Source: Prosthecobacter sp. (GTDB lineage Bacteria > Verrucomicrobiota > Verrucomicrobiia > Verrucomicrobiales > Verrucomicrobiaceae). From it: a DNA stretch of 64,000 bases. A program made the translations under genes and the position numbers. Numbering within the stretch: position 1 is the first letter of the stretch; every line of letters begins with the position of its first letter. The stretch covers positions 1-64,000 of the forward strand of contig JABARQ010000009.1 in assembly GCA_019186985.1 (NCBI GenBank), in the 5' to 3' direction. Positions 8,734 through 24,741 of this stretch are shown piece after piece. The notes below the pieces were generated by a model. It worked only from the letters and a program-made list of their open reading frames with translations, was not told the DNA's origin and did not search any database.

Positions 8734-9657
8734 ATGCTCGACCTCACTGGCAAAATCATCGCCCTGCTCAAGGGCGGTCCCGGCAGCGAACGCGCCGTCT
8801 CCCTGAAAACCGCCGAGAGCGTCGCCGAAGCCCTCCACAGCATCGGCGCCCAGGTCGTCGAGGTCGATGTCACCGGTCCGGATTTCGAAGTGCCCGCCGG
8901 CACCTTCATCGCCATGAACCTGATCCACGGCACCTTTGGCGAGGACGGTCAGCTCCAGGCCATCCTGGAAAAGCGCGGCATCCGCTACACCGGAGCCGGC
9001 GTCGAAAGCAGCCGCATCTGCTTTGACAAGGCGCTGAGCAAGCAGCGCTTCATCGCCGCCGACGTGCCCACGCCACGTTCCCAGAACTACGTCCTCGACG
9101 GTCCTGAACCCCTCGGCATCGGCCTGCCGCTCGTCTCCAAACCGCCCCGTGAAGGCTCCAGTGTCGGCGTCAGCATCTGCCGCACCCAGGAAGATCTCGA
9201 CAAGGCGCTCGTCGAAGCCCGCAAATTCGGCGCCACCACGCTGGTCGAGGACTTCATCGAGGGCAAGGAGCTCACCATCGGCATCCTGGGCGACCAGGTG
9301 CTGCCCATCATCCACATCGAACCCGTCGAGGGCTTCTATGACATGAACAACAAATACCCGTGGATGACCGGCACCAGCAAGACGCTCTACCACTGCCCCG
9401 CCGACCTCGACGCCGAAACCACGAAACGCGTTCAGGACGCCGCCCTTGCGGCCTTCCAGAGCTGCGGCACCGAGGTCTACGGCCGCGTCGACGTCATCCT
9501 TCGCGCCAGCGACAACGCGCCTTTCGTGCTCGAGATCAACACCATCCCGGGCATGACCAGCAGCAGCCTCCTGCCCAAGGCCGCACGCGCCGTCGGCATC
9601 GAGTTCCCCGAGCTCTGCGCCCGCATCATCGAGCTTTCCATCGCCGCACGCGGCTGA
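8734..9657 (+). CDS. ddl: D-alanine--D-alanine ligase
   Basis: A 307-residue ATP-grasp ligase that joins two D-alanines for the peptidoglycan stem peptide. Seen: N-terminal KGGPGSERAVSL, the GSSVGVSI loop, VEDFIEGKELTIGILG, and the C-terminal metal/phosphate site EINTIPGMTSSSLLPKA. ATG 8734 fits the family N-terminus; the open frame upstream is spacer. The pyrophosphatase gene follows after 13 bp, so the two may share a transcript. Confidence 0.95.
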   Translation: MLDLTGKIIALLKGGPGSERAVSLKTAESVAEALHSIGAQVVEVDVTGPDFEVPAGTFIAMNLIHGTFGEDGQLQAILEKRGIRYTGAGVESSRICFDKALSKQRFIAADVPTPRSQNYVLDGPEPLGIGLPLVSKPPREGSSVGVSICRTQEDLDKALVEARKFGATTLVEDFIEGKELTIGILGDQVLPIIHIEPVEGFYDMNNKYPWMTGTSKTLYHCPADLDAETTKRVQDAALAAFQSCGTEVYGRVDVILRASDNAPFVLEINTIPGMTSSSLLPKAARAVGIEFPELCARIIELSIAARG

Positions 9658-9670
9658 AGCCCCGCCCCCC

Positions 9671-11338
9671 ATGGACCCCATCTACGTCATCGGCCACCGC
9701 AACCCCGACACGGACGCCATCTGCGCCGCCATTGGTTATGCCGCCTACCTGCGCGAAGTGCGCGGTGGCGAGGTCGTCGCCGCCTGCTGCGGCGAGATCA
9801 ACGCCCGCACAAACTGGGTTCTGAAGCTGGCCGGCATGGAGGCCCCCAAGCTCCTGCTCGACGTCCGCCCCACCGCCGGCATCGTCTGCCGCAGGGAGGT
9901 GCTCACCGCGAAGCCCCGCGAGACCTTCCTTTCGGTCTATCGAAAGATGATGGAGCACAGCTTCCGCTCCATCCCCGTCGTGGATGAAAGCAACAAGCTG
10001 CTCGGCATGCCCACCATCCAGGAGATGGCCCAGCTTTTCCTCCCCAGCGAGGCAAGGCACGGCGCCGCCAACCGCGAGGTGACCACCAGCGTGCAGAACA
10101 TGGTCAACGCCCTCGGCGGCCGCCTGATCAGCAGCACGGAAGGCGATGACAAGGTCGAGCAGCTCGTGCTCGTCGTCGCCGCCTCCAGCGTCGAAACCTC
10201 CCGGGAACGCGCCCGTCAGTTCCCGCCCCGCCAGGTCGTCCTGGTCACGGGTGACCGGCCCGAAATTCACGCCCTTGCCATGGAGCTGGGTGTGCGATGC
10301 CTCGTCGTCACCGGCGGCTTCACCCCCTGGGAAAGCCTGCTCAGCCAGGCTCAGGCAAAAGGCGTCAGCGTCATCTGCGCGCCTCAGGACACCGCCAGCG
10401 CCTCCCAGCTCATCCGCTTCTCCCGGCCCATCGCCGAAACGCTCGACCACGCCTTCCTCTCCTTCACGACCCGCACGCCGCTGCGCGAAATCATCCACGC
10501 CGTCCAGGACTCGCACCAGCCCCTGTTCCCGGTGATTGATGAGGAAACGGGCCGCCTCGAAGGTGTGTTCTCCAAGTCGGACCTCGTCGAAGTGCCGCGC
10601 ACCCGGCTGGTCCTCGTCGACCACAACGAGTTCTCCCAGGCCGTCGCCGGCGCCGATGAAGCCGACATCCTCGAGGTGCTCGACCACCACCGCCTCAGCG
10701 GCAACCTGCGCACCAAGGAGCCCGTGCGCTTCATCAACGAACCCGTCGGCAGCACCAGCACCATCGTCGGCATCATGTTCCGCATGCGCGGCCTGACTCC
10801 GGACAAGGGTACCGCCATCTGCCTCTGTGCCGGCCTGATCTCCGACACCCTCCACCTCACCAGCCCCACCACCACCCAGACCGACCGTGAGATCCTAGAA
10901 TGGCTCTCCAAAGTCGCCTGTGTCGATGCCGCGCAGTTTGTGAAGGACTTCTTCGCCGCCGGCTCCCTGCTCCGCGAAGCCACCCCGGCCCGCGCCATCG
11001 AGGGCGACCGCAAGGTCTTCGAGGAAAACGGCTGGCGCATCAGCATCAGCCAGATCGAGGAGATGGGCCTCGACGAGTTTTGGAAGAAGGAAAAGGACCT
11101 GCACGAGGCGCTCTCCTCCCTCTGCAAGGCGCACAGCCTGCACTTCGCCTGCCTCATGGTCACCGACATCACCATGCATCACAGCGTGCTGCTGGTGGCC
11201 GGTGACAAGCGTGTCGCAGCAGCGATCGACTACCACGAGCGCAGCCCGCAGGTCTACGACATGCCGGGCGTCGTCAGCCGCAAGAAGCAGCTCTTCCCCT
11301 ACCTCAGCAACCTGGTCGGCAAGCTCACGCCGCCCTGA
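9671..11338 (+). CDS. CBS/DRTGG-type manganese-dependent inorganic pyrophosphatase
   Basis: A 555-residue family II pyrophosphatase with regulatory insertion. The N-terminal DHH domain begins IGHRNPDTDAICAA, then come a CBS motif (SIPVVDESNKLLGM), a DRTGG-like domain, a second CBS motif (LFPVIDEETGRLEGVFSKSD), the DHH catalytic motif LDHH and the C-terminal DHHA2 domain. It hydrolyses pyrophosphate in the cytoplasm. In this subclass adenine nucleotides (and diadenosine polyphosphates) bound at the CBS pair tune activity. Length matches the CBS-DRTGG class rather than the 310-residue basic enzyme. Confidence 0.93.
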   Translation: MDPIYVIGHRNPDTDAICAAIGYAAYLREVRGGEVVAACCGEINARTNWVLKLAGMEAPKLLLDVRPTAGIVCRREVLTAKPRETFLSVYRKMMEHSFRSIPVVDESNKLLGMPTIQEMAQLFLPSEARHGAANREVTTSVQNMVNALGGRLISSTEGDDKVEQLVLVVAASSVETSRERARQFPPRQVVLVTGDRPEIHALAMELGVRCLVVTGGFTPWESLLSQAQAKGVSVICAPQDTASASQLIRFSRPIAETLDHAFLSFTTRTPLREIIHAVQDSHQPLFPVIDEETGRLEGVFSKSDLVEVPRTRLVLVDHNEFSQAVAGADEADILEVLDHHRLSGNLRTKEPVRFINEPVGSTSTIVGIMFRMRGLTPDKGTAICLCAGLISDTLHLTSPTTTQTDREILEWLSKVACVDAAQFVKDFFAAGSLLREATPARAIEGDRKVFEENGWRISISQIEEMGLDEFWKKEKDLHEALSSLCKAHSLHFACLMVTDITMHHSVLLVAGDKRVAAAIDYHERSPQVYDMPGVVSRKKQLFPYLSNLVGKLTPP

Positions 11339-11459
11339 TCACTTCTGGGCTTTCCCGACCCAAAAGACATCGAACGGCCCCACCTCCGCGCCAAGCGGAT
11401 CGTGATTCCCCAGAAAGTTTTGCTTTCCTGCCTGCCTTCCCAGCCAGCAAGGTTGAGGC

Positions 11460-12542
11460 ATGCCCAAAAGAAAAAAGCCAGCAATCCCCAAAGCTGCATC
11501 CATGGATTTCCTCAAGGAGAAGGAAGCCATGCTCAAAGCCGTCAGCCGGCTGCTCGAGGATAAGAACTTCAAAAGCCCTGAGGAAGCCAACCAGTTCCTC
11601 AGCCAGTTCGTCGGCATGCGCATGGAGGACGTCACGCAGGCCCTCAGCCCACGACGGAAGGCCGATGCAGGCGAAAGAGCCGACGATCTCTTTTTCGAGG
11701 CGATGGAGTCACGCTCCGGCGTCACCGCCAAACGAAAGCTCAAGGAGGTTCTCAAGCTCGACCCTGATCATGTGCGGGCCCGGATCGCCCTGGCCCTGAT
11801 GGAGACCAGCCTGGACAAGGTCGAGAAGCTGCTGCGCGAAGCAGTGGCTGCGGGGGAAAGGCGCCTTGGAAGCATGTTGGAGGAGGAGTGCGGGCGCCTT
11901 TGGTGCTGGCATGAAGCCCGCCCCTACATGGAGGCACGGGCTGAACTGGCCCGGCACCTTGCCTTGCAGGAATCACGAATCGACGAAGCCATCGTCGAAC
12001 ATCAGGAACTGCTGCGCCTCAATGAAAACGACAACCAGGGAATCCGGAACCCCTTACTCGGCCTTCTTCTGGAAGTCGGCCGTTTCGATGACGCCCGGGC
12101 GCTGGTGAAGCGGTATGACACGGAATACGCCGCCACCTGGTTGTATGCCAAGGCCTTGCTCGCCTTCGAAAAACATGCCCGCAAGGCTGGATGGGGCCCG
12201 CCTCAGCAGGCGCATGATCATGACTGGCTTCAGGAACAGATGCGCCTGATGGCATCCGGCGTCCGTCCAAAAATCCCTGCGGAGGTCCACAAGGCCGACA
12301 AGCTCCTGATCAAGGCGCTCAAGTTCAATCCCTGGTGTGCCATTTACATCATCAAGTGTGGCACCTATCTCCAGATGGAGCCGCCTCAATCCTACAGCCC
12401 GGGCAGCCCGGAGGAGGCACGGCTTTTTCTGGATTCCCAGCTCAGCGCCTGGACCTCCCATCCCGCCTCCCTACTCTGGCTGATGTGTGTCGCCCTGCCC
12501 TGGCTGATCCAAAACGGCTACGAAAAGGAAGCCGCGCCGTGA
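11460..12542 (+). CDS. ST7-like/TPR-like helical protein
   Basis: A 360-residue soluble, mostly helical protein. The middle (LRLNENDNQGIRNPLLGLLLEVG followed by an ALVKRYDTEYAATWLYAKALLAF-type segment) resembles bacterial proteins related to eukaryotic ST7, which are TPR-like. The N-terminus is basic and lysine-rich (MPKRKKPAIPKA). No catalytic motif is visible and the role is unknown. The gene stands alone on the plus strand and converges with the M23 peptidase gene. Confidence 0.6.
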   Translation: MPKRKKPAIPKAASMDFLKEKEAMLKAVSRLLEDKNFKSPEEANQFLSQFVGMRMEDVTQALSPRRKADAGERADDLFFEAMESRSGVTAKRKLKEVLKLDPDHVRARIALALMETSLDKVEKLLREAVAAGERRLGSMLEEECGRLWCWHEARPYMEARAELARHLALQESRIDEAIVEHQELLRLNENDNQGIRNPLLGLLLEVGRFDDARALVKRYDTEYAATWLYAKALLAFEKHARKAGWGPPQQAHDHDWLQEQMRLMASGVRPKIPAEVHKADKLLIKALKFNPWCAIYIIKCGTYLQMEPPQSYSPGSPEEARLFLDSQLSAWTSHPASLLWLMCVALPWLIQNGYEKEAAP

Positions 12543-12582
12543 AGCACTCCCCCTGACAGCCCCCCGGAAACACCTGCCGTCC

Positions 12583-14067
12583 TCACTCCCCCACCCGCAC
12601 CCAGAGATGAGCCACGGCGCGCTCGCCGCGTTCGTTCGTGCGCTCGACGGTCACCAAATGGTCGCCCGCCCTGGCAAAGACATGCTCGGTGACGGCATAA
12701 CCTTCTTTATCGAGAGGCTTGGCGTTCCCGTCCGAGGTCACCTTCACCGGCGGCGTGCCGTCGCCAAAATCCCAGGTCTCACCGCCCCGGTCCCGGAAGG
12801 TGCGGACCTTGAAGGTGATGGGCTGCCCGGGCTTCAGATTCTGCGTCGGCCAGAAACTCGGGTGAATCGTCGGAGGGATGTTCTTTTCATCCGGCCCGAT
12901 CACCTGCACGACGGCAAAATCATAACTCACCCGCCCGGCGTCATCGGTGACCTTGAGGATCTCGCTGTAGCTGCCGGGCTTCTCATAGGTTCGGCTGACC
13001 CTGGCCTGGCTGGACCTGCCACCGTCCGTGAAGGTCCACTCATGGCTCGCGATCTTCCCTGAGGCCGCCCAGGACTTGCCGCCGTCCAGGGTGATCGTCT
13101 CGCCGGCACGGATGAAGTGATGCGGTCGCGCCACCGCGATCACCGCAGGCTTCTGCTCCTGCACATAAGCCTGCCAGGCAAACGCATAGGCCTCCTGCGT
13201 GCCCCACCTGCCCGATGGCTGCCGGCTCTTGATGCCAAAGTGCAGGTGCGACCAGCCCCCGCTCGCCCCCTCCTTGCCCAGGATGCCGATCTTCTGACCC
13301 ATCTTCACCCGCACCCCGAGCTGGATCGCCGGGTCAATCGTGTGCAGATGACTGTAGCGGTAGTACCAGCCACGGCGGTCGAGCAGGTAGACGACGTCAT
13401 ACCTCGGCCTGACCGGCGTGAGTGAATGGCCGTCCAGGATCTTGTCGGCCACGCTGACCACCAGGCCGTCCGTGGCTGCGATGACCTCGGTCAATCCCTC
13501 ACAGCCGCCGAAATCGAGGTCGTTGTGATAGTAGATCTTCTTCCGGTCCGGCTTGTCGCCGCCGTCCACAAAGGTGGGCTCGTTGGAAAACTGCGTCATC
13601 GTGGCAAACCAACGTTGCTTCAACGGATAAACAAAGGTCCCCGGCTCGATCCAGGGCGACCCTGCGGGCCAGAGCCGCAGCCGGGCGTCCTTTTCCAGCC
13701 CCCAGGAATCCTCTCCGCTGTTGGTGTTGTAGCCCCGGGTGATGGGGCAGTCCACCTGCACACCGCCGACAGCCTGGGGAAGATGGTAGTTCGCGCTCGA
13801 AAGCACCGCCTTCTCCCCATTCACCTCCACTGTCACCTTCGCCTCACGCACCGCCCCGGCCATTGAGTCGATCTTCTCCTGCAGGTCCAGCAGCCGCACC
13901 TTTGCCACCGTCCCATCCGCCAGCCGCACCTCCGCTGCCTCCCCCAGTTTCAGATCCACCGCCCGCAATGTCGGCTCCAGGCTGGCCTGGGGCAGTTCCG
14001 CAAGCAGCACCTGAAAGCAGCCAAGACAGATCCAGACCAGGGCACGGGGAAGAAAGGAGCGATTCAT
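12583..14067 (-). CDS. exported M23 (LytM-like) metallopeptidase with PKD domains
   Basis: 494 residues from ATG 14067, starting with a signal peptide (FLPRALVWICLGCFQVLLA). A LytM/M23 domain in the middle shows the zinc motif HNDLDFG, a tyrosine-rich YYRYSHLH segment and the second motif HLHFG. Two PKD-like beta-sandwich domains follow (HEWTFTDGG and ETWDFGDG motifs), ending at ...VRVGE. Likely a periplasmic or secreted cell-wall or protein endopeptidase. Transcribed divergently from the ATPase pair, so the 129 bp containing the palindrome at 14143 separate the two starts. Confidence 0.85.
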   Translation of the reverse strand: MNRSFLPRALVWICLGCFQVLLAELPQASLEPTLRAVDLKLGEAAEVRLADGTVAKVRLLDLQEKIDSMAGAVREAKVTVEVNGEKAVLSSANYHLPQAVGGVQVDCPITRGYNTNSGEDSWGLEKDARLRLWPAGSPWIEPGTFVYPLKQRWFATMTQFSNEPTFVDGGDKPDRKKIYYHNDLDFGGCEGLTEVIAATDGLVVSVADKILDGHSLTPVRPRYDVVYLLDRRGWYYRYSHLHTIDPAIQLGVRVKMGQKIGILGKEGASGGWSHLHFGIKSRQPSGRWGTQEAYAFAWQAYVQEQKPAVIAVARPHHFIRAGETITLDGGKSWAASGKIASHEWTFTDGGRSSQARVSRTYEKPGSYSEILKVTDDAGRVSYDFAVVQVIGPDEKNIPPTIHPSFWPTQNLKPGQPITFKVRTFRDRGGETWDFGDGTPPVKVTSDGNAKPLDKEGYAVTEHVFARAGDHLVTVERTNERGERAVAHLWVRVGE

Positions 14068-14142
14068 GAGCGGACAAATCGTCCCGCCCTCCCAGACTCT
14101 TGCGCTCTGTGCAGGTGAGGCGTCATGTCGATTAAGCGGCCC

Positions 14143-14190
14143 AAAAAAGGCCAACAAAAATGTTGCACAACAATATTGTTGGCCTTTTTT
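14143..14190. promoter_or_regulatory. 48-bp nested palindrome upstream of the ATPase pair
   Basis: Perfect 15-bp arms, AAAAAAGGCCAACAA (14143-14157) and TTGTTGGCCTTTTTT (14176-14190), enclose a smaller inverted repeat TGTTG-CA-CAACA (14161-14172). It has the shape of a two-way terminator, with A and T runs at both ends, yet it sits in a divergent promoter region 6 bp before the proposed GTG start at 14197. It could be an operator, an attenuator, an insulating terminator or a mobile-element end. Confidence 0.85.
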
Positions 14191-14196
14191 AAATCT

Positions 14197-15456
14197 GTGA
14201 GAACACCCAAACTAGCACGGCCGACCCCAGACTTTTATGTTGGTTCCGTCGTTCCTTCTGAGGACTTGAGGTTTCGGGACGCCTTCATCGAGGAGCTCTG
14301 GGAATCCATCGCCAGCCACCATTTGATCCTCAAGGCTCCCCGCCGCTGCGGAAAAACCAGTGTCATGGAGCATCTTCGTGCCTCGCCGCAGCATGGCTAT
14401 TCCGTGATCTACGAAAACGTCCAGGACCTTGTGCATCCGGCGGACCTGTTCCTCGCCATCCTCGACAACTTCCGCGACCAGCATCCAGGGCTGTTTCACA
14501 CGCTCGTCAAGGGGTGGCAGACCGTCACCTCATGGCTGCCAAAAGTGGAGGAGATCGAATGTGGTGAAGTGAAGACCAAGTTCCGGGAGAATGTGAAGGA
14601 CTACCGCGAACACTGGCGGGAGCATGGTGATGCCCTCTTCCGCCAGCTTCGATCCCTGAAGCGCCCCGTGCTCATCATCGTGGATGAACTGCCGGACATG
14701 CTTCTCAACCTCAGGCAGGAGGATCCTAAGCTCCTGCGGGATTTCCTCTCCTGGTTCCGGGACAAGCGTTGTGACCCCCTGCCGAAAAACGACACCGTGC
14801 GCTGGCTGCTTGGCGGCTCGATCAACCTGTCCTCGACGCTCGACGGCATGTCGCTGCTGGATCGCATCAACGACCTCAAGGACATGCCGCTGCCCGATCT
14901 CACGCCACACCAGATCGAAACCTTTGTGAACGAGATGCTGACAGCCCGTCATGTCGAGTTTGAAAAGAAGCTGCCTGAAAGGCTGAGGGAGCTGCTTGGC
15001 CGCCCGATACCCCTCTTCCTGCAAATGCTCACGCAGGACCTCTATCGCTCCTGGCGGAACAGGCCGCGCAAGCTCAGGAAGGCGGACGTGGAGGCGGAGT
15101 TCTCACGCTTTGTGACCAGCACCGCAGCCCAGGACAAGCTTCAGCACTATTACACACGGCTGGCCAAATATTACGAGGAGCCGGCGCTCAGCCAGGCTCA
15201 TGAAATCCTGAACCACCTCTGCCAGACCGCGGAGAAAGATGGCAGGGACGAGGGTGCCAGCCGGGCCACGCTGATGCATCTCGTTGAAGGCACCTGTCCA
15301 TCCGGCAGGCTGCCCGCCGCCCATGAACGGAAAAGGCTTTTCCTCCAGCTCATGCGGGACCTGGAGAATGACTTTTACATCACCGAAACCACCCCGGGCC
15401 GCTACGGCTTCGCCAGCGGCATCATGAAAGCCTGGTGGAGGAAGCATTATGCCTGA
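14197..15456 (+). CDS. P-loop (AAA/STAND-type) ATPase, first gene of a two-gene system
   Basis: 419 residues from GTG 14197. The frame is open back to ATG 14125, but that stretch translates the palindrome, so the GTG is preferred. Visible: Walker A APRRCGKTS (47-55), Walker B VLIIVDE (158-164), and a sensor-like strand WLLGGS (about 203-208), as in archaeal-type ATPases of the MNS/STAND group. The remainder is helical with no nuclease, protease or TM segment that I can see. Its stop overlaps the next gene's start by 8 bp (ATGCCTGA), implying translational coupling. Exact function unknown; a conflict or signalling role is inferred from context. Confidence 0.7.
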   Translation: MRTPKLARPTPDFYVGSVVPSEDLRFRDAFIEELWESIASHHLILKAPRRCGKTSVMEHLRASPQHGYSVIYENVQDLVHPADLFLAILDNFRDQHPGLFHTLVKGWQTVTSWLPKVEEIECGEVKTKFRENVKDYREHWREHGDALFRQLRSLKRPVLIIVDELPDMLLNLRQEDPKLLRDFLSWFRDKRCDPLPKNDTVRWLLGGSINLSSTLDGMSLLDRINDLKDMPLPDLTPHQIETFVNEMLTARHVEFEKKLPERLRELLGRPIPLFLQMLTQDLYRSWRNRPRKLRKADVEAEFSRFVTSTAAQDKLQHYYTRLAKYYEEPALSQAHEILNHLCQTAEKDGRDEGASRATLMHLVEGTCPSGRLPAAHERKRLFLQLMRDLENDFYITETTPGRYGFASGIMKAWWRKHYA

Positions 15457-18082
15457 AAACAACCGTCACTCCCACTTTGGCTTCTACCGCACCGGCCTGA
15501 TGACGCCGGAGCACCGCCGCTTCGTGACCGTCGGGCGCGGACATGTCCTGGAGGACCTGCTGGATGCCCTGAGAAAAAACGCCGGCCGCGCCGCCAGGCA
15601 TCACGCCCTCTTCATCGGCCTGCGTGGCATGGGGAAAACCCACCTGCTCTCGCTCATTGAGGATGAGATCCATCATGACCCCGGGCTGGCAGCTCACTAC
15701 ACGGTCGTCCGCTTCCCCGAGGAAAGCCTGCGAACCTTGTCTTTCGCCGACTTCCTGCTCGGCATGCTGGAGATCCTTGCCACGAACCACCCCGAGGAGC
15801 CGGAATGGCGGACGCTTCATGAAAAGCTGCGCGAGGAGGAGGATGACGCCCGAATCGTGGACACCGTGGTGGCGGCGGTTCGAAAGGCCGCCCAGCAGCA
15901 CCGGCGCACCTTCCTCATCATGATGGAGAACATGGGCGAGGTTTTCACGAAGCAGATCAGGAACAAGCGGGAGATCGCGGCGCTGCGGAAGTTCCTCATG
16001 GACTCCAAAAACGGCTGCCTCTTCATCGGCACGGCCACTCAGAGCTTCGCCGGACTGACCAGCGTGGACGAACCCTTTTACGACTTCTTTGACGTCCAGC
16101 ACCTGGAACACCTGTCCGAGGAGGAGGCCTCCAGGCTTGTCCACCGCACCCTTGAATGGGAGAAACGCGGGGACCTCCTCGCCCAGTGGGAGGACCTGCA
16201 TCCACGCATCCTTGCCCTCTACCGCATGACCGGCGGCAGTCCGCGCCTCACCGTCATGCTGGCCGAGTTGATCGCCAAGGATTCCGTCATCGAGGTGAAG
16301 GAGCAGTTCCGCATCCTCATGGACCGCATCACGCCTTTCTTCCAGGACCGGCTGAAGGCCATCAGCGGCTCCCAGGAATGCGCCGTGCTCGAAACCATGG
16401 CCACCATGCGCGATCAGGACAAAACCCCCGCCAGCATCGCCAGACGCATGCGCATGAAGGCCTCGCAGGTGTCCGCCTTGCTGGGACGACTCGCGGACCA
16501 GCGGCTGGTGCGCTCCAGCCCGCATCCTGAGGACAAGCGGGTGCGCCGCTACACGATCAGCGAGGGGCTTTTCGACCTCTGGCTCTACATGAACGTCTCC
16601 CGCGGAGCCCGGGAGCGGCAGCCCTTCCTGCTCGACTTCTTCGCCACTTTTTATCCCAGCTACCTGGCGCGTGAAAAAAAGCGCGCCGAGCTGCTGGAGG
16701 ACGCCGGGAGGCAGGAAAAACGTGCCAACGCCCTCGCCGCGCTTGATACGCTCAGCCAGATCGGCACGCCCATGGAGCGGGCGCGGTCTAAAATGGTCCT
16801 GGCGACGGCCTACAGCTGCAGCGGACACGAGACCGACGCCCAAAACGTACTTCGGGAGGCCGCAGACGAGCCCCTGGATCGACTGGGGGGCTGGATTGCC
16901 CACAGCGCCATGGCAGACGCTTACCCGGACTATCTCACCGAGATTCAGGAGCTCATCACGCTCTGGGATGAGCACCGGAGCGGCAACCTCGAAGCCTTTG
17001 TGCGAAAGATGCGGGAGATGGGGGAGGCCTTCACCCCGTTCGCCTATTCAAAGGCCAAGCTCGCCTTTCTTGAGACCCACCTGGAAGAGGTGCCCCCAGG
17101 AGACGATCGTATACGACTGCGGCTGAAGATCGGAAGGCTTCACCGGGATCTGGCGCATTGGAAGGAAGCTGAAACTCAAACCCGCCTTGCCGTCGAAGAG
17201 GCAGAAGCACATGCACCGTCCCTGAGTTCCTGGGCGCTCAATGATCATGCGCAACTGCTAAAAGCCACGAACCGGCTGGCAGAAGCCGAACCCCTCATGC
17301 GCCGTGCCCTCGATCTGGTCGAAAAGAGCTCCGGCCCCGATCATCCCAACGTCGCCATCCACCTCAACAACCTTGCACAATTGCTGCAAGACACGAACCG
17401 GCTGGCAGAAGCCGAACCCCTCATGCGCCGTGCCCTCGATCTGGGTGAAAAAAGCTTCGGCCCCGATCATCCCAACGTCGCCATCCGCCTCAACAACCTC
17501 GCAACACTGCTGCAAGCCACGAACCGGCTGGCAGAAGCCGAGCCGCTCACACGCCGTGCCTTCGATCTGGTCGAAAAGAGCTTCGGCCCAGATCATCCCA
17601 ACGTCGCCACCTGCCTCAGCAACCTTGCAACACTACTGCAAGCCACGAACCGGCTGGCAGAAGCCGAACCCCTCATGCGCCGTGCCCTCAATCTGGTCGA
17701 AAAGAGCTTCGGCCCAGATCATCCCAACGTCGCCATCCACCTCAACAACCTTGCACAATTGCTAAAAGCCACAAACCGGCTGGCAGAGGCCGAACCCCTC
17801 ATGCGCCGTGCCCTCGATCTGGACGAAAAGAGCTTCGGCCCAGATCATCCCAACGTCGCCATCCGCCGCAACAATCTCGCAGTACTGCTGCAAGCCACGA
17901 ACCGGCCGGCAGAGGCCGAACCCCTCATGCGTCGAGCTGTCGCCATCCTCCGGCTTTTCGAGAAAGCCACCGATCACCCCCATCCAGAACTCGACAAGTT
18001 CACCAGCAACTACCGGCTACTCCTGGAAGACATGGGCCAAACCCCTGGGCAAATCGAGCAATCGCTGGCATCTTTGAATTGA
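15449..18082 (+). CDS. P-loop ATPase with winged helix and C-terminal TPR array
   Basis: An 877-residue STAND-like protein. Walker A GLRGMGKTH spans 57-65. The Walker B strand is unusual, FLIMMEN (155-161), with Glu/Asn where Asp/Glu is normal. A sensor strand LFIGTAT (191-197) and a GGSPR motif (262-266) follow. A MarR-like winged helix covers about 310-375 (IARRMRMKASQVSALLGRLA). Degenerate helical repeats lead into six 42-residue TPRs of the kinesin-light-chain type (GPDHPNVA in each), from about residue 607. Such arrays usually sense a ligand in STAND proteins. No separate effector domain is visible. Partner of the ATPase at 14197. Confidence 0.75.
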   Translation: MPENNRHSHFGFYRTGLMTPEHRRFVTVGRGHVLEDLLDALRKNAGRAARHHALFIGLRGMGKTHLLSLIEDEIHHDPGLAAHYTVVRFPEESLRTLSFADFLLGMLEILATNHPEEPEWRTLHEKLREEEDDARIVDTVVAAVRKAAQQHRRTFLIMMENMGEVFTKQIRNKREIAALRKFLMDSKNGCLFIGTATQSFAGLTSVDEPFYDFFDVQHLEHLSEEEASRLVHRTLEWEKRGDLLAQWEDLHPRILALYRMTGGSPRLTVMLAELIAKDSVIEVKEQFRILMDRITPFFQDRLKAISGSQECAVLETMATMRDQDKTPASIARRMRMKASQVSALLGRLADQRLVRSSPHPEDKRVRRYTISEGLFDLWLYMNVSRGARERQPFLLDFFATFYPSYLAREKKRAELLEDAGRQEKRANALAALDTLSQIGTPMERARSKMVLATAYSCSGHETDAQNVLREAADEPLDRLGGWIAHSAMADAYPDYLTEIQELITLWDEHRSGNLEAFVRKMREMGEAFTPFAYSKAKLAFLETHLEEVPPGDDRIRLRLKIGRLHRDLAHWKEAETQTRLAVEEAEAHAPSLSSWALNDHAQLLKATNRLAEAEPLMRRALDLVEKSSGPDHPNVAIHLNNLAQLLQDTNRLAEAEPLMRRALDLGEKSFGPDHPNVAIRLNNLATLLQATNRLAEAEPLTRRAFDLVEKSFGPDHPNVATCLSNLATLLQATNRLAEAEPLMRRALNLVEKSFGPDHPNVAIHLNNLAQLLKATNRLAEAEPLMRRALDLDEKSFGPDHPNVAIRRNNLAVLLQATNRPAEAEPLMRRAVAILRLFEKATDHPHPELDKFTSNYRLLLEDMGQTPGQIEQSLASLN
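17270..17945 (+). repeat. 126-bp tandem repeats encoding TPRs
   Basis: The phrase AACCGGCTGGCAGA, or a one-base variant, recurs at 17270, 17396, 17522, 17648, 17774 and 17900, exactly 126 bp (42 codons) apart. Units are nearly identical at DNA level, including silent positions. This is coding repeat inside the ATPase/TPR gene, not a CRISPR. Confidence 0.95.
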
Positions 18083-18083
18083 A

Positions 18084-18113
18084 AGAAAAAAGCGGCTGAG
18101 TCGCCTCAGCCGC
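18084..18113 (-). terminator. terminator hairpin in the gnd-end duplicate
   Basis: Stem GCGGCTGAG (18092-18100) with CTCAGCCGC (18105-18113), loop TCGC. The A-rich run at 18082-18091 gives a T-tail on the minus strand. It is the counterpart of the gnd terminator at 20086 and lies just past the stop of the ATPase/TPR gene. Confidence 0.7.
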
Positions 18114-18240
18114 CTTCGCGTTGATTGGAGGATGCGGACAGGAGTGTCCGCGGTCCTTGTGGATTACCCGATCACCTCTGGCCATTCCGTGTGGAAGAAC
18201 TGGCCTTCGGGCTTGTCGGTGCGCTCGCAGGTGTGGGCAC
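18084..18240. repeat. duplicate of the gnd 3' end (direct repeat, left copy)
   Basis: This segment repeats 20081-20239 in the same orientation: terminator hairpin, the shared GACAGGAGTGTCCGCGG spacer, and the last ~26 codons of gnd, including its stop. The minus strand reads AHTCERTDKPEGQFFHTEWP... against AHTYERVDKPEG... in the intact gene. Similarity stops abruptly at 18240/18241. Several differences are silent or conservative, so this is a homologous but diverged copy, not a recent exact duplication. It looks like an att-type scar of insertion at the gnd 3' end. Confidence 0.85.
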
Positions 18241-18284
18241 TGGCATCTATGCGCGGATCCACAGCGACGAATTCCGGAACAAGC

Positions 18285-19076
18285 TCAATCGTAAATGCCG
18301 AGAAATGTTTCCAACTCCTCGTCAGGCTGGCAGAGAATCACGTCGAAGGGCAGCAGATCCCCATCCTTCAGGTAGCAGTTCCTCGGCAGGGCATCGATGG
18401 CGAGCGTCTGGAAGGCATGGTTGAAGAACAGAAGGTGCTGGCCCGTGGGATCGACAATCCGAGTCCAGCCGGAGGCGATGAAGTGCTGCTCGATCTCGCG
18501 CTCCGTCGCCGGTTCACCATGATACTGCGGCTGGCTGATGGCGAAGGAGACCTGCCCATCCGCCCATTGCACCACGGCGGTGAGCTTCACGTCATCGCCA
18601 AAAACCTCATTGGCCGCGATCCAGCGCTCCAGATACTCCATCGGCGTGGCATGAATGAACTCGATGGCCTTCCGCCTGCCGGGTTCTCCACGCAGGTTTG
18701 GCACCGGATGCGTGATCACTTTCGGAATCAGGCCGAATTTCGGCGGGAGGGTCAGTTTGCCCACTCGCCCGCCTTCATCCATCAACTCGACGATGTGCTC
18801 GGTTCCAGCCTGTCGGTCGGGTTCGGAGTCGCGAAAGGTTTCCCAAGTCGTGTCTGCCTGAATCAGGAAGCCAAGTTCATCAGCGAGAGCAACCGCTTGT
18901 TCGGCCTGGTCTTTCGCGAGGCGAGCCCGGACGTGCCCAGCACCTTCGAGGTGGTGGCCACAAAGGTCGCGTAGTCGGTCACGGAAGGCTTCAAGCGAAT
19001 GGCCTTCGTGACGGGCTGCGGACTGTTTTTTTTCGGATTCACGACGTTGGGAGTATCGGGCAAGTCCGTGCTGGCG
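18285..19076 (-). pseudogene. 5'-truncated hypothetical protein
   Basis: An uninterrupted frame of 263 codons from after a TGA (19077-19079) to the stop at 18285. It has normal-looking codon use but no ATG or GTG in the first two thirds; the first TTG is at 18785 and gives only 166 residues. The upstream part is helical (for example EAFRDRLRDLCGHHLE). The C-terminal part contains IEFIHATPMEYLERW, QHFIASGWTRIVD and GDLLPFDVIL. I cannot name the family; it looks like the tail of a larger mobile-element or phage-type protein whose 5' end is missing. Confidence 0.5.
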
Positions 19077-19099
19077 TCAATCGGGGCGTTGCAATCACA

Positions 19100-19330
19100 T
19101 CACAAGTTCACTGCGGTGTTCTCAAACTCCTCGCGGTGGAGCCACCAGCCGTACTTTTTGATGAGGCCGCCATTCGCAACCGTGCTCTGGACGAAGCGCA
19201 GCGGATCGCCGAGCGAGGCCCCATGCCACTCTGCCTCGCCGCTGTGGTAGAAGCAGCGAGCGCGATGCGCAGTTGCCGACTCGAAAGCCTCGTCCGAGCA
19301 AATGCATGGTGCAAACGATGACTTTGTCGT
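19100..19330 (-). pseudogene. start-less C-terminal gene fragment
   Basis: A frame of 76 codons between a TAA (19331-19333) and a TGA ending at 19100 translates to a convincing protein end (RARCFYHSGEAEWHGASLGD ... GLIKKYGWWLHREEFENTAV) but contains no start codon. It abuts the other truncated gene on the same strand. Probably debris of an inserted element. Family not recognised. Confidence 0.45.
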
Positions 19331-19351
19331 TTATGAGGTAACAAGATAACC

Positions 19352-20035
19352 ATGAGCCAAAACACAGGCACATATACCGCAAAATCTTTCAAAGACGACT
19401 TTGAAAGCGCAAGCCTACAGACCCTTTATCGAAAGATGAAGAAGACGTCGAAAGCGAGGTTTAACGCAGCAGCTCGGCTGATAAGGCATCAGACTTTCTC
19501 TTTATGGACTATGTCTTTGTTCTCTGCGGGCCTCATAGTCCTTCAGCTTCTCGGTGCATACAAGATTCCGATAGGTTTCACCGACAGCACATACCAGTTC
19601 ATTCAAATGGCGCTGGGATTACTGGTTCTCGTGCTCTCTCTCTTGCTCACTTCAAACAAGTTTAGTGAGCGTTCAGAAAAGATGCACCGGTGCGCTCTGG
19701 AGATAAACAACCTTTGCCATAAAATTCTACCAAAGTGCAAAGACGATAACGATTCGGCCCTCTACAATAAGACGTTGACCGAGTACAATACGATTCTGGA
19801 TGCGAACGACAATCACGAGCAAATCGACTTTGCATATGTGAAGTTATCTTTGCCGGAAGATTATCAGTTCACAAAAACGCAGCGTTTCTGTGTGCATGCA
19901 AGGTACTGGCTGGGATATTGGGTATATGGCCTGCTGGCTTTGCTCCTGCTGACAACCTTTATTGCTACTTTTGCCCGTAAGCCTGTCGATTCGCCATCAA
20001 GCGCCCCGACGCCGGTTGGCTCGGTGGAACCTTAA
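19352..20035 (+). CDS. SLATT-like two-TM protein (candidate pore effector)
   Basis: 227 residues. An N-terminal basic helical segment (LYRKMKKTSKARFNAAARLI) leads into two adjacent TM helices (about 53-72 and 84-102), then SNKFSERSEKMHRCALEINN. This pattern, a RFNA.RL motif, two TMs and an E.(L/M)HRCALE(I/L)N helix, is typical of the SLATT family, proposed to form membrane pores in anti-phage systems. A third hydrophobic segment (about 183-205) lies near the C-terminus. No CD-NTase, SLOG or reverse-transcriptase partner is adjacent. The DNA is visibly richer in A/T than its neighbours, pointing to transfer. The family call is from memory of the motif, not a search. Confidence 0.65.
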   Translation: MSQNTGTYTAKSFKDDFESASLQTLYRKMKKTSKARFNAAARLIRHQTFSLWTMSLFSAGLIVLQLLGAYKIPIGFTDSTYQFIQMALGLLVLVLSLLLTSNKFSERSEKMHRCALEINNLCHKILPKCKDDNDSALYNKTLTEYNTILDANDNHEQIDFAYVKLSLPEDYQFTKTQRFCVHARYWLGYWVYGLLALLLLTTFIATFARKPVDSPSSAPTPVGSVEP

Positions 20036-20080
20036 TCAAGCCTCACGGCGCGCATTCTTGGCGGGAGTTCTGCAACATCG

Positions 20081-20239
20081 AAACGAAAAAGGCGGCTGGA
20101 AGTTCCAGCCGCCTTTGTGTTGATTGGATGAGGCGGACAGGAGTGTCCGCGGGCCTTGTGGATTACCCGATCACCTCCGGCCATTCCGTGTGGAAGAACT
20201 GGCCTTCGGGCTTATCGACACGCTCATAGGTGTGGGCAC
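20081..20239. repeat. gnd 3' end and terminator (direct repeat, right copy)
   Basis: Native copy of the repeat at 18084-18240, belonging to the intact gnd gene and its downstream terminator. The two copies bracket about 2.0 kb. Confidence 0.85.
20086..20113 (-). terminator. gnd terminator
   Basis: GGCGGCTGG (20091-20099) pairs with CCAGCCGCC (20105-20113), loop AAGTT, with AAAAA at 20086-20090 giving a T-tail on the minus strand. It sits about 50 bp past the gnd stop codon. Confidence 0.8.
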
Positions 20240-21605
20240 CAAAGAAGTCGCGCTGGGCCTGGAGCAGGTTCGCCGGCAGACGCTCGGCGCGGTAGCTGTC
20301 GTAGTAGCCGAGCGAGGCGCTGAACGCAGGCACCGGAATGCCGTTGAGCGTCGCGAGGCTCACCACTTCGCGCCAGCTCTGCTGGGTCTTGCTGAGCACG
20401 TCCTTGAAGAACGGGTCGAGCATGAGGTTCGCGAGCTGCGGGTTGGTGCGGTAGGCGTCGGTGATGCGGTTGAGGAAGCGGGCGCGGATGATGCAGCCGC
20501 CGCGCCAGATGGCGGCGATGCGGCCGAGGTCGAGGCCCCAGTTCTTCTTCTCACCCATGGTTTTGATCAGGTCGAGACCCTGGGCGTAGCTGATGATCTT
20601 GGAGGCGTAGAGGGCGTCGTGCACCTTTTTGACAAGCTCCTTCTTGTCGGTGGTGATGTTCACCTTCGGGCCGGTGAGCTGCGTGCTGGCGGCGACGCGC
20701 TGCTTCTTCTGGCTGGACAGGATGCGCGCCTCGACGGCGGCGTTGATGGTGCTGATGACGACGGCGTTTTCAGCGGCGTTGAGCAGGGTCCACTGGCCCG
20801 TGCCCTTCTGGCCCGCCTTGTCGACGATGAGCTCGACAACCGGCTTGCCGGTCTCCGGATCCTTCTGCTCCAGGGCCTTGCCGGAGATCTGGATCAGGTA
20901 GCTGAGCAGGTCGCCCTCGTTCCACTCGTTGAAGATCGCGGCCATCTCGTCGGTGGTGAAGCCGGCGTGCTTGAAGATGTTGTAGGCCTCGCAGATGAGC
21001 TGCATGTCGCCGTACTCAATGCCGTTGTGGATCATCTTCACATAGTGACCGGCGCCGCCGGGACCGATGTGGATGACGCAGGGCTCGCCATCGACCTTGG
21101 CGGCGATGGATTCAAAGATGGGCTTCATGACCTCCCAGGTGCTGGCAGGGCCGCCGGGCATGATGGAGGGGCCTTTGCGGGCGCCTTCCTCACCGCCGGA
21201 AACGCCCGCGCCGATGAAGCGCAGACCCTTGCCCGCCAGGTAGGCGTCGCGGCGCTCGGTGGTCTGGTAGAAGCTGTTGCCGCCGTCGATGACGATGTCA
21301 TCCTTGTCGAGAAGGGGGATGAGCTGCTCGATCACGGCGTCCACGGCATCGCGGTCGCTGTCCTTCACGGCGGTGGACTTCACCATGATGTGAATCTTGC
21401 GCGGGGTGGCCAGGGACTGGACGAAGTCTTCCAGGGTGTGGCAGCCGACGAGGTTCTTGCCCGGGTGCTTGGAGACGAATTCGTCGGTGACGCTGGTGGT
21501 GCGGTTGTAAACGCTGACCTGGAAGCCGCGGCTTTCGACGTTGAGAACGAGGTTTTGGCCCATCACGGCAAGGCCGATCAGACCGAAGTCACTTTTTTTG
21601 CTCAT
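20163..21605 (-). CDS. gnd: 6-phosphogluconate dehydrogenase (decarboxylating)
   Basis: 480 residues, the length of the long homodimeric class. It oxidises and decarboxylates 6-phosphogluconate to ribulose 5-phosphate with NADP in the pentose phosphate pathway. Seen: N-terminal Rossmann motif GLIGLAVMGQNL, NRT for the cofactor phosphate, IDGGNSFY, the substrate loop VSGGEEGARKGPSIMPGG, and the catalytic lysine/asparagine region GHYVKMIHNGIEYGDMQ. Start set at ATG 21605 (MSKKSDFG); 15 residues of upstream frame are spacer. The 3' end is duplicated at 18162-18240, which suggests it is an insertion target. Confidence 0.97.
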   Translation of the reverse strand: MSKKSDFGLIGLAVMGQNLVLNVESRGFQVSVYNRTTSVTDEFVSKHPGKNLVGCHTLEDFVQSLATPRKIHIMVKSTAVKDSDRDAVDAVIEQLIPLLDKDDIVIDGGNSFYQTTERRDAYLAGKGLRFIGAGVSGGEEGARKGPSIMPGGPASTWEVMKPIFESIAAKVDGEPCVIHIGPGGAGHYVKMIHNGIEYGDMQLICEAYNIFKHAGFTTDEMAAIFNEWNEGDLLSYLIQISGKALEQKDPETGKPVVELIVDKAGQKGTGQWTLLNAAENAVVISTINAAVEARILSSQKKQRVAASTQLTGPKVNITTDKKELVKKVHDALYASKIISYAQGLDLIKTMGEKKNWGLDLGRIAAIWRGGCIIRARFLNRITDAYRTNPQLANLMLDPFFKDVLSKTQQSWREVVSLATLNGIPVPAFSASLGYYDSYRAERLPANLLQAQRDFFGAHTYERVDKPEGQFFHTEWPEVIG

Positions 21606-21814
21606 AGATTTAGGGGGGACGAGCCTTACCCCCCCAGCCGGGTTTGGCAAAGGGGATTTTCCTCATGGCGGCCATGAGCCGGGCTGATGCACACCGGGCC
21701 GCCCCTGACCTCCTCCTGGTTAGGCCGGCCCGTCCCCCGGCTCTGTTTTTGACAGATTGGAAGATGCCCCTGGCTCAGGCCGTGCTATGTTCCCGGCCGA
21801 CCCCGTTCCTGAGC

Positions 21815-22906
21815 ATGTCCCTGATCACCAACTCCCCCGGCTGGACCAGCACCCCGCGCGCTTCGTTTCGCGCCCGGGACGACTGGAGCCTGAAATGGTG
21901 GGTCATGTTCGCCGTCATCCTCTCCTTCGGTTTCCACGGCCTGCTCTACATGAGCTTCGACAAGATCAGCATGGTCTTCGGCAGCGTTTCAAAGCCGGTG
22001 GTGCAAAACAAGGTGCCTGAGCGCATCAAGATCGACCCCCGCCTCCTCCAGGAGCAGAAGGCCATCCAGGAGATCCCTGAGATGATCGCCCCGGGCAACC
22101 AGCCTGACATCAAGGCCTTCGAGGCCGACCTCGACAACTTCGACAAGGCCCAGATGATCGCCGAAAACCAGGAGATCGACCTAACGCCCAACGTCAAGGA
22201 GGTCACCAACTTCCTGCGCCAGACCGACCCCGGTGACGGCCGCACCCCGGGCGGCGCCCGCATGAACGACCTGGCCGCCCTGCTCGCCCCCCAGGCCGCC
22301 ATGGCCGCCCCCGATCTCGCCAGCGCCATGGCCGCGGTTCGTCGCGACGTCCTCTCCAAGCCGGTCTCGGAAAAGCAGATGCTGCTCGACGCCGGGGCGC
22401 TTGAGCCCAAGGACGGCGCGGGCAGCATCGACGCTGACCTGCTCGGCGAGGTGAAGAAGCAGGGTGACGGCGATGCCGCCGGTACGCGGGTCAAGGGCTT
22501 CAGCAACCTCGACGACCTGCTCGGCGGCGGCGGACGCCTCGGCGGCAGCACGGCCCCGATCCTCATGCCCACCGACCTCCTGTTTGAATATGGCAGCGAC
22601 CAGCTTGCCGAGGGCGCCCGGCTCAGTCTCATGAAGCTCGGCTTCCTCATTCAAAAGAACCCCGACAGCCTCTTCATCGTCGAGGGCCACACCGACAGCT
22701 TCGGCGGCGAGGACTTCAACCTCGACCTCTCCCTGCGCCGCGCCAACGCGGTGGTCGAATGGCTGCGCAATTCGTTACGCCTCGGCACTGACCGCATCCA
22801 GGCCGCCGGCCTGGGCAAGAGCAAGCCCATCGTCAGCACCACCGGCACGGTCGAGGAGCAGGGCCTGAACCGTCGCGTCGAGATCAAGGTCCGCGCGAAG
22901 AAATAA
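21815..22906 (+). CDS. OmpA-family (peptidoglycan-binding) envelope protein
   Basis: 363 residues from ATG 21815. One TM segment near the N-terminus (WWVMFAVILSFGFHGLLYMSF, split around residues 29-49) anchors it in the inner membrane. A long charged, Ala-rich periplasmic region follows. The C-terminal OmpA-like domain (from about 255) shows the peptidoglycan-binding signature EGHTDSFGGEDFNLDLSLRR and NRRVEIKVR at the end. Likely links envelope and peptidoglycan, in the manner of MotB/TolR-associated proteins. It ends 11 bp before the convergent thioredoxin gene. Confidence 0.85.
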   Translation: MSLITNSPGWTSTPRASFRARDDWSLKWWVMFAVILSFGFHGLLYMSFDKISMVFGSVSKPVVQNKVPERIKIDPRLLQEQKAIQEIPEMIAPGNQPDIKAFEADLDNFDKAQMIAENQEIDLTPNVKEVTNFLRQTDPGDGRTPGGARMNDLAALLAPQAAMAAPDLASAMAAVRRDVLSKPVSEKQMLLDAGALEPKDGAGSIDADLLGEVKKQGDGDAAGTRVKGFSNLDDLLGGGGRLGGSTAPILMPTDLLFEYGSDQLAEGARLSLMKLGFLIQKNPDSLFIVEGHTDSFGGEDFNLDLSLRRANAVVEWLRNSLRLGTDRIQAAGLGKSKPIVSTTGTVEEQGLNRRVEIKVRAKK

Positions 22907-22917
22907 AGCCATGCCCC

Positions 22918-23376: not shown

Positions 23377-23391
23377 GGGAACAAGATCGGA

Positions 23392-23429
23392 TTGACGTTA
23401 ATTCTTGCATATACGCATACGCTCATATA
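23392..23429 (+). promoter_or_regulatory. candidate promoter/operator for the sulfur cluster
   Basis: TTGACG (23392-23397) followed 18 bp later by CATACG (23416-23421). The same stretch holds three CATA words at 8-bp spacing (23408, 23416 and 23424: CATATACG, CATACGCT, CATATAG), possibly a regulator site. The -10 match is weak. Confidence 0.3.
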
Positions 23430-23467
23430 GTTGGAGCGCAAAGGAAACATATTCCTTCCAACCCACC

Positions 23468-24697: not shown

Positions 24698-24741
24698 ACC
24701 GCCGCTCCAGCCCCATCCACAACCCAACCCCAAGCATCCCC

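What the first reader, a model, noticed from the sequence alone, without database searches (positions are those of the whole stretch)
14197..18082. Overlapping pair of P-loop ATPases, the second with winged helix and TPR sensor: candidate undescribed STAND-type system
Two adjacent genes overlap by 8 bp (ATGCCTGA). Each has its own Walker A and B, so two different ATPases are made together. The second has the nucleotide-binding domain, winged helix and superstructure-forming repeats of STAND proteins. Neither shows a nuclease, TIR, protease or TM effector that I can recognise, unlike Avs, bNACHT or CapRel-type systems. The pair sits beside a duplicated gnd end and a SLATT-like gene. The architecture is seen; the defence or conflict role is inferred from context.
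Basis: partly seen in the sequence, partly recalled or inferred. Interest (0 to 1): 0.85.

Follow-up and report, generated by a model that had tools for sequence, protein, structure and literature searches.

The report
Autoregulated pair of NLR-like bacterial ATPases
Two different switch-type ATPases, one with a repeat-built sensor arm, are made from one two-gene unit that seems to carry its own control site and is found patchily in distant bacteria; it looks like an undescribed two-part relative of immune-receptor switches, but what it senses and does is not known.

Summary
P1 (14197-15456) and P2 (15449-18082) overlap by 8 bp. P1 is a bare nucleotide switch (ATPase plus winged helix); its predicted fold is closest to archaeal STAND-like ATPases (Z 24), then plant NLR and CED-4 cores. 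P2 is an ATPase with MarR-like winged helix and kinesin-light-chain-type TPRs. The pair is nearly obligate: of 41 loci with a P1 above 100 bits, 40 have P2 beside it, and P1 and P2 searches picked the same 6 of 398 and 9 of 294 genomes. P1 keeps Walker B 'DE'; P2 has '[D/E]N' in 41 of 43. Distribution is patchy across phyla. New here: a palindromic array just upstream of P1, unique in the 5.9-Mb genome and recurring at the same place in relatives, so the unit is probably self-regulated. The defence role is not shown: flanking genes were no richer in defence families than controls, and the SLATT gene came by a separate insertion. Best reading: an autoregulated two-component STAND switch, P2 sensing and DNA-binding, P1 its partner ATPase; output unknown. 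New variant of a known kind.

The parts
14152..14181 (.). Operator-like array: two dyads CAACA-N4-TGTTG spaced by 2 bp, inside a 48-bp imperfect palindrome 14143-14190
   Evidence: Unique in own genome even with 3 mismatches; 0 in 100 shuffles of the window; best forward-strand composite site of the whole locus lies just upstream of P1 in 10 of 12 close-relative loci; palindrome
14197..15456 (+). P1: 419-aa ATPase (AAA_22/ATPase_2-like NOD with C-terminal winged helix); GTG start; no repeats or effector domain recognised
   Evidence: Pfam; alignment; AlphaFold pLDDT 83.2; VIA-align Z 24.0 to 2qen and 2fna, 19.6 to plant NLR 9h2l, 17.1 to CED-4 4m9s
15449..15456 (+). 8-bp overlap ATGCCTGA (P2 start / P1 stop); translational coupling inferred
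   Evidence: Sequence; an ATG at the same 8-bp overlap in 11 of 12 close loci (window, L023-L031, L047; L094 has CTG there)
15449..18082 (+). P2: 877-aa STAND-like ATPase + winged helix + helical arm + TPR sensor
   Evidence: Pfam; alignments; model; fold
15608..15649 (+). P2 Walker A stretch (aa 54-67, LFIGLRGMGKTHLL)
15905..15946 (+). P2 Walker B stretch (aa 153-166, RTFLIMMENMGEVF): E160-N161, catalytic acid replaced by Asn
   Evidence: [DE]N in 41 of 43 family members
16373..16564 (+). P2 MarR-like winged helix (aa 309-372)
   Evidence: MarR_2 E 6.3e-9, HTH_27 E 6.3e-8; D362 and R364 invariant in 10 close relatives
17225..17950 (+). P2 TPR array, about six 42-aa units; units 2-5 are 88-93% identical in DNA
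18078..18240 (.). Copy of the gnd 3' end, left edge of the SLATT insertion (not part of the pair)
20077..20239 (.). Original gnd 3' end, right edge of that insertion

Best explanation
An accessory, horizontally moving, autoregulated two-component STAND switch. P2 is the sensor: its fast-changing TPR arm holds the NOD closed until a ligand binds, and its MarR-like winged helix (alone or with P1) sits on the palindromic array in the shared promoter and holds expression low. P1 is a bare NOD with an intact catalytic centre that P2 recruits or seeds into a mixed NLR-like assembly when P2 is loaded with ATP; the same change frees the promoter, so the response amplifies itself. SHOWN: near-obligate pairing, overlap, fold class of P1 and of the P2 TPRs, different Walker B classes, co-evolution, patchy distribution, conserved position of the array. 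INFERRED: that P1 and P2 bind each other, that P2 binds the array, repression rather than activation, ligand sensing by the TPRs, mixed assembly. NOT KNOWN: trigger and output. I think a stress- or invader-triggered response more likely than metabolism, but only weakly.
For: Pairing: 40 of 41 P1 loci above 100 bits have P2 adjacent on the same strand (one of the 40, L039, has P1 in two frames). P1 and P2 profiles select the same 6 of 398 genomes (the P1 search also gave G711, weak, E 7e-11), and the 9 strong P1 genomes of 294 equal the 9 P2 genomes (7 further genomes had weak P1-like hits only). Co-evolution: identity matrices of 36 pairs, r 0.96, 0 of 2000 permutations as high. Division of labour: P1 Walker B DE in 39 of 39 covered, P2 [DE]N in 41 of 43. 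Folds. Array. Accessory: pair absent beside gnd in 6 of 6 same-genus genomes with readable flank; the nearest relative of a Proteobacteria MAG's pair (L027) is a Gemmatimonadetes one (L031). Sensor evolution: dN 0.228 in TPR vs 0.081 in NOD and 0.098 in P1 against L023.
Against: No direct evidence of a complex or of DNA binding. The same composite palindrome occurs in 4 viral contigs without P1/P2 in the DNA held, once just upstream of a hicA-like gene, so an unrelated regulator can use such a site. L047 and L094 lack a good site. TPR dN/dS is 0.21, not above 1. P2-like proteins without P1 exist on Agrobacterium, Sphingobium and Mycobacterium plasmids. G321 (L041) has P1 without P2, and a Methylomonas plasmid has an open P1 with P2 cut to a 93-residue frame. 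No defence enrichment nearby.
Confidence: 0.5

Rival explanations
1. Anti-phage or abortive-infection system: TPRs detect a phage product, the assembly kills or halts the cell through the ATPases or an unseen activity.
For: Patchy, on plasmids and in several phyla. Faster-evolving sensor. One Moraxella plasmid copy lies near QatD and a kinase; solo P2 relatives lie near Pycsar and AbiE genes or cyclase and ThiF genes. One P2 is fused to NACHT-FGE, with NACHT-FGE genes on both sides of the pair.
Against: PADLOC neighbours 57 families vs 59 in controls at 1e-15; no effector domain recognised; P2 residues 1-560 have no match in the phage collection at E 0.01, and no close P1 relative was found in viral contigs (exact peptide patterns only).
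Confidence: 0.3
2. Transcription factor of MalT type: P2 reads a small molecule and the pair controls host genes.
For: TPR superhelix matches MalT domain III (Z 27.8, rmsd 3.5 over 346); winged helix related to MarR, Csa3 and CasR models; array at the promoter.
Against: The composite site occurs once in the genome. Single dyads occur at 10 places, 2 of them here; of the 8 others I inspected 4: 3 lie inside ORFs and 1 (G000:C15:37490) ends 34 nt before an ORF. Neighbouring genes are not conserved.
Confidence: 0.15
3. Toxin-antitoxin-like unit: two genes, autoregulated by palindromes, one protein restraining the other.
For: Overlap, array at the promoter, P1 hardly ever without P2 while P2 relatives can stand alone; the same site type precedes a hicA-like gene in a viral contig.
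Against: Both proteins are large ATPases of one broad class; no toxin family recognised.
Confidence: 0.12
4. ORC/Cdc6-like DNA-handling or element-maintenance pair (initiator or partition), with the array as its DNA site.
For: P1 also matches ORC2 (Z 19.5, rmsd 5.3) and TnsC (Z 13-15); weak PF24389 ORC-CDC6-like matches in P2 relatives; both proteins have winged helices.
Against: Most loci examined are on chromosomal or unassigned contigs, with no conserved neighbour; the TPR arm is unusual for that role (recalled).
Confidence: 0.08
5. Two unrelated ATPase genes that happen to be neighbours.
For: None beyond P2-like genes alone on some plasmids and one P1 alone.
Against: Co-occurrence and co-evolution.
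Confidence: 0.01

Closest known systems
Archaeal STAND-like ATPases SSO1545 (2fna) and PAB2304 (2qen)
   Same: Nearly whole-length fold of P1: Z 24.0, rmsd 3.9-4.0 over 324-335 residues
   Different: 14-16% identity; I know of no obligate partner for them (recalled)
MalT
   Same: STAND switch with TPR sensor and arm; P2 TPR matches MalT domain III; arm-switch mechanism from passages of PMC4381067
   Different: MalT acts as one protein with a C-terminal DNA-binding domain (recalled); here the winged helix lies between NOD and TPR, and a second ATPase goes with it
Plant paired NLRs and NRC helpers; NAIP/NLRC4
   Same: Two NOD proteins acting as a pair, one as sensor (search listing and abstract starts only); the P1 core resembles NLR cores
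   Different: Analogy only: no CC, TIR or CARD domain recognised in P1; no complex shown
Avs (AVAST) systems
   Same: STAND ATPase with C-terminal repeats as sensor (passages of PMC12931631)
   Different: Avs1-4 use nuclease effectors and Avs5 a Sir2 effector (same passages); none recognised here
Mad8 of MADS
   Same: Most frequent weak PADLOC match: 16 of 22 P2 NODs, 5 of 24 P1, best E 4.5e-7
   Different: MADS has eight genes (recalled); the window's adjacent genes are none of them
MNS clade of STAND NTPases, Npun2340/2341 family
   Same: Named in passing as an MNS-clade family in PMC8195603 (passage); a possible earlier sighting of such ATPases
   Different: I did not obtain those sequences; relation untested

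Membership tests
STAND NTPases | P-loop NOD with winged-helix subdomain | tested here: met
   P1 by fold. P2 by Pfam: AAA_16 just below its cut-off plus MarR_2 above, weak nSTAND matches in relatives; the P2 NOD fold itself was barely tested, as TPRs filled the search
STAND NTPases | C-terminal superstructure-forming repeats | tested here: met
   Met for P2; none recognised in P1
Avs/AVAST | Nuclease or Sir2 effector domain | tested here: not met
   No such domain matched in P1 or P2
MADS | Full set mad1-mad8 beside each other | tested here: not met
   Only weak mad8-like similarity. The window's adjacent genes (DHH/CBS protein, TPR protein, M23/PKD protein, 166-aa ORF, SLATT, gnd) are not mad genes; genes further away were not scanned
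bacterial paired-NLR (proposed) | Obligate genetic pairing of two NOD proteins | tested here: met
   exceptions L041 and the cut P2 of L176
bacterial paired-NLR (proposed) | Mixed oligomer on activation | not testable with these tools
   The structure tool takes one chain; needs biochemistry
Toxin-antitoxin module | Autoregulated operon with palindromic operator | tested here: inconclusive
   Operator-like array present; binding untested
Toxin-antitoxin module | One product toxic, the other neutralising | not tested
   Needs expression
Anti-phage defence system | Protection against phage, or clear association with defence islands | tested here: inconclusive
   No enrichment in 112 vs 112 genes; plasmid anecdotes only

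The most novel reading that the evidence does not exclude
Bacteria carry a widespread sensor/helper pair of NLR-like proteins encoded as a two-gene, self-repressing unit: a TPR sensor that is also its own repressor (P2, catalytic acid missing) and a bare NOD ATPase (P1) that it recruits, with no separate effector domain, so that the mixed NOD assembly or its ATPase/DNA-binding is itself the output.
Probability: 0.25. Interest if true: 0.85.

Novelty: new variant of a known kind. Interest (0 to 1): 0.62.

Why it matters
It defines a near-obligate pair of different STAND ATPases, found in 14 of 387, 6 of 398 and 9 of 294 genomes sampled in three phyla, with what looks like a dedicated operator. 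If the pair forms a mixed assembly it would be a simple bacterial counterpart of sensor/helper NLR pairs, and would make testable how a switch without an attached effector produces an output. The operator gives an immediate, cheap assay: what releases it is a candidate for what the TPR arm senses.

Tried and rejected
Defence-island argument: tested with 112 flanking genes of 32 loci (up to two per side; 108 of the 162 listed plus four of the window, its SLATT gene included) and 112 of 144 control genes from 19 loci of the same genomes, 13 on the same contig. 57 vs 59 families at 1e-15, so no excess; dropped as evidence. Only the first 25 families are shown, families overlap, and no count per gene is given, so this is a coarse test.

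SLATT as a component: rejected, as it is absent between pair and gnd in L023.

gnd 3' end as an integration hotspot: homology among same-genus genomes stops at or shortly after the gnd end, but the genes beyond that I scanned are ordinary (esterases, a MoxR-like ATPase, an oxidoreductase, RuvA, EF-G), so not proven.

A third conserved gene: none seen; the same-strand close downstream genes of L043, L054, L093 and L099 differ from one another.

Known RNA element for the 14143-14190 hairpin: none in Rfam at gathering threshold, 9000-25000. As RNA it folds well in the window (z -3.74), but upstream regions of relatives do not fold consistently better than shuffles while the DNA dyads persist, so I read it as DNA.

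Overlap of the dyad with the best promoter-like match: 28 of 35, but both were sought in the same stretch of about 120 nt and no control was run; not used as evidence.

Equal lengths (1748 aa) of two ORFs in L039 and L043: coincidence, no similarity. gnd row: misframed (24 codons), not used.

Paper searches for such a pair: no listing that describes it; the library lacks most subscription journals. The viral fold search of P1 gave mostly general AAA and clamp-loader-like matches. Families not listed by fold searches are not taken as absent.

Rows left out of counts: P1-like ATPases under 100 bits (L044, L045, L046, L048, L070, L079-L085, L088, a second one in L099, and three minor hits in G390, G393 and G395), and fragment L087 (surroundings not fetched); L006, L063 and L104 are the same place as L029, L001 and L003 the window. 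L176 was examined after the count of 41. The 41 include three related Moraxella plasmids. In one search, L054 (near-copy of L050), loci with broken or partial P1 (L039, L049, L101, L102) and L041 were left out.
Full report
WHAT IS THERE. Two genes on the + strand overlap by 8 bp, ATGCCTGA. P1, 14197-15456, is a 419-aa P-loop ATPase: AAA_22 (E 1.4e-6) and, below cut-off, ATPase_2. The frame is open from ATG 14125, but close relatives align from about GTG 14197. P2, 15449-18082, is 877 aa: AAA_16 (just below cut-off), a MarR-type winged helix at 309-372, and TPRs of the nephrocystin-3/kinesin-light-chain kind. In the own 5.9-Mb genome no second copy of either was found; the other hits are weak or cover only the TPRs. 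Named close relatives of the window are Verrucomicrobiaceae and Prosthecobacter MAGs.

FOLD. A model of P1 (pLDDT 83.2) matches over nearly its whole length the archaeal ATPases 2qen and 2fna (Z 24.0); then follow, tied, plant NLR cores (9h2l, Z 19.6; 9cc9, 19.4) and ORC2 (1w5t, 19.5), and CED-4 (4m9s, 17.1). So P1 looks like a bare NOD with its winged helix, without sensor repeats or a recognised effector. The P2 model (pLDDT 77.5) gives a TPR superhelix like APPBP2 (Z 36.7), MalT domain III (Z 27.8) and kinesin light chain; its NOD was modelled less well and its fold was barely tested.

THE PAIR IS NEARLY OBLIGATE. Scanning the fetched loci with local profiles, 41 loci carry a P1 above 100 bits and 40 have a P2 NOD next to it on the same strand, overlapping or at most 41 bp away (in L039 and L049 P1 is broken, in L101 and L102 partial; the three Moraxella plasmids are related). 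The exception is L041 (genome G321). Fifteen of these loci (L089-L103) were in neither local profile, and all 15 have both genes. A further locus seen late, a Methylomonas plasmid (L176), has an open P1 followed by a P2 cut to a 93-residue frame. The 8-bp overlap with an ATG is kept in 11 of 12 close loci; L094 has CTG there.

Whole-genome searches agree. In 398 genomes of the phylum of G391 (a MAG titled Proteobacteria), the P1 profile hits 7 and the P2 profile 6, the six shared, the seventh weak. In 294 genomes of the phylum of G394 (Pirellulaceae), the P2 profile hits 9, exactly the 9 with strong P1 hits; 7 more had weak P1-like hits only. The P2 profile A7 contains some of these same loci (L030, L090, L095, L098, L099, L102), which were found through P1, so the finding of P2 there is not independent; what is informative is that no further genome had P2 at E 1e-15. 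In the window's own phylum 17 of 387 genomes have a P1-like hit at E 1e-3, and 14 of them have the pair. The first look scores only a few candidates per genome, so these are lower bounds. Identity matrices of P1 and P2 over 36 pairs correlate at 0.96, with 0 of 2000 permutations reaching it.

TWO DIFFERENT CATALYTIC CLASSES. P1 has Walker B 'DE' in 39 of 39 members where the site is covered. P2 has '[D/E]N' in 41 of 43 (exceptions L092 DS, L097 ED), and a Glu after the second strand (first Glu of F-x-E-E) in 42 of 43. I infer that P1 is the committed hydrolase and that P2 either hydrolyses slowly or uses the displaced Glu. This was not tested.

ACCESSORY AND MOBILE. Relatives 48-82% identical to the window's P1 occur in MAGs titled Verrucomicrobiaceae, Prosthecobacter, Akkermansia, Opitutia, Opitutaceae, Proteobacteria, Binatota, Pirellulaceae and Gemmatimonadetes, whereas two same-genus genomes have only 24-25% identical ones and a third has none. 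Beside gnd, where the pair lies in the window and in L023, no P1 or P2 was found in six same-genus genomes whose flank could be read, from 2.2 to 12 kb; in two more (G1091, G1093) the contig ended. These eight were not searched genome-wide for the pair. Copies lie on three Moraxella osloensis plasmids, in one P1 is interrupted by an IS5 element. P2-like proteins without P1 occur on Agrobacterium, Sphingobium and Mycobacterium plasmids (a P1 search of one Agrobacterium and the Sphingobium plasmid was empty; their chromosomes were not searched).

THE OPERATOR. Upstream of P1 the window has CAACA-N4-TGTTG twice, 2 bp apart (14152-14181). With up to 3 mismatches this composite occurs once in the whole genome and never in 100 shuffles of the window. 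I wrote the motif from the window and L023-L025, after looking at the other upstream regions too. In 10 of 12 close-relative loci, and 6 of the 8 not used to write it, the best forward-strand match of the entire locus (4-64 kb) begins within 85 nt upstream of P1; in L030 the margin is one position, and L047 and L094 fail. More distant subfamilies show other palindromes in the same place, for example TAACTATAAAATTATAGTTA and variants before the Moraxella pair. Scored without any motif, 15 of 35 P1 upstream regions hold a dyad of at least 10/13 against 9 of 133 other intergenic upstream regions of the same loci (Mann-Whitney p 5.5e-6; 1.1e-4 for the 31 loci without the four used to write the motif); the loci are related, so these p values are too small. 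Since pair and array recur together in several phyla while neighbours do not, the binder is most likely P2 or P1. Caution: the composite also occurs in 4 viral contigs without the pair in the DNA held, in one just upstream of a hicA-like gene.

THE SENSOR. Against L023 the TPR part has dN 0.228, the NOD 0.081 and P1 0.098, with dN/dS 0.21, 0.10 and 0.05 (dS is 0.8-1.9, so ratios are rough). TPR units 2-5 of the window are 88-93% identical to each other in DNA, while the first four units of L023 are 61-67% identical: I infer recent re-amplification of the array in the window's lineage. C-terminal parts vary over the family: several TPR kinds, no repeat family matched in L033, L037 and L054, and NACHT-FGE in L043.

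CONTEXT AND DEFENCE. The PADLOC scan of 112 flanking proteins gave 57 families at 1e-15; the 25 shown are PD-T4-6, mad6, MkoA and a kinase model, each matched by 2 or 3 members, which I take for the same few protein kinases (recalled). 112 control proteins gave 59. Flanks sampled by Pfam include gnd, RF3, Omp85/TamB and TrkA/RyR genes. The SLATT gene and a 166-aa ORF lie between two copies of the gnd 3' end (18078-18240, 20077-20239), while in L023 the pair lies next to gnd: a separate insertion. Defence is thus possible but unproven.

MECHANISM. I propose a self-repressed sensor switch as set out under Best explanation, by analogy with the MalT arm mechanism (passages of PMC4381067) and with NLR pairs (search listing with abstract starts only). 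Steps shown and inferred are separated there.

KNOWN OR NEW. PADLOC, PHROGs and NCBIfam gave only weak matches to P1 and to the NOD of P2; the strong NCBIfam match of P2 (FxSxx_TPR, below its cut-off) covers the TPRs. Mad8 is the nearest named defence relative, weakly. Passages of PMC7159879, PMC8195603, PMC13092281 and PMC12931631 concern related STAND or defence systems; the passages I saw do not describe this pair. The Npun2340/2341 family mentioned in PMC8195603 could be a relative; I did not have its sequences.

Noticed in passing
window 18078-20239: A 2-kb segment with a 166-aa ORF (no Pfam, NCBIfam, PADLOC or PHROGs match) and a SLATT_5 gene is inserted between two copies of the gnd 3' end (163 bp, 87% identical).
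   Followed up: partly
L173 567-596 and 636-815: A viral contig carries the same double CAACA-N4-TGTTG site just upstream of a small ORF that I read as hicA-like (by eye, no family search).
   Followed up: partly
L043 1600-14947: P2 fused to NACHT and FGE-sulfatase domains, with further NACHT-FGE genes on both sides; a cluster of NLR-like genes around one pair.
   Followed up: partly
L050 10037-15560 (and L049): On two Moraxella plasmids the pair is followed by a dUTPase, an ORC-CDC6-like protein (PF24389, E 1e-136) and an N6 methylase; possibly another defence-like operon, with QatD and a kinase upstream in L050.
   Followed up: no
L176 3761-5195: On a Methylomonas plasmid P1 is open but P2 is cut to a 93-residue frame.
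   Followed up: no
window 13631-13704 (-): ARAGORN calls tRNA-Gln inside the M23/PKD protein gene; probably a false call.
   Followed up: no
G000:C15:37490-37503 (L160): A single CAACA-N4-TGTTG dyad ends 34 nt before an ORF of at least 488 aa: the one candidate second target among the four other sites inspected.
   Followed up: no
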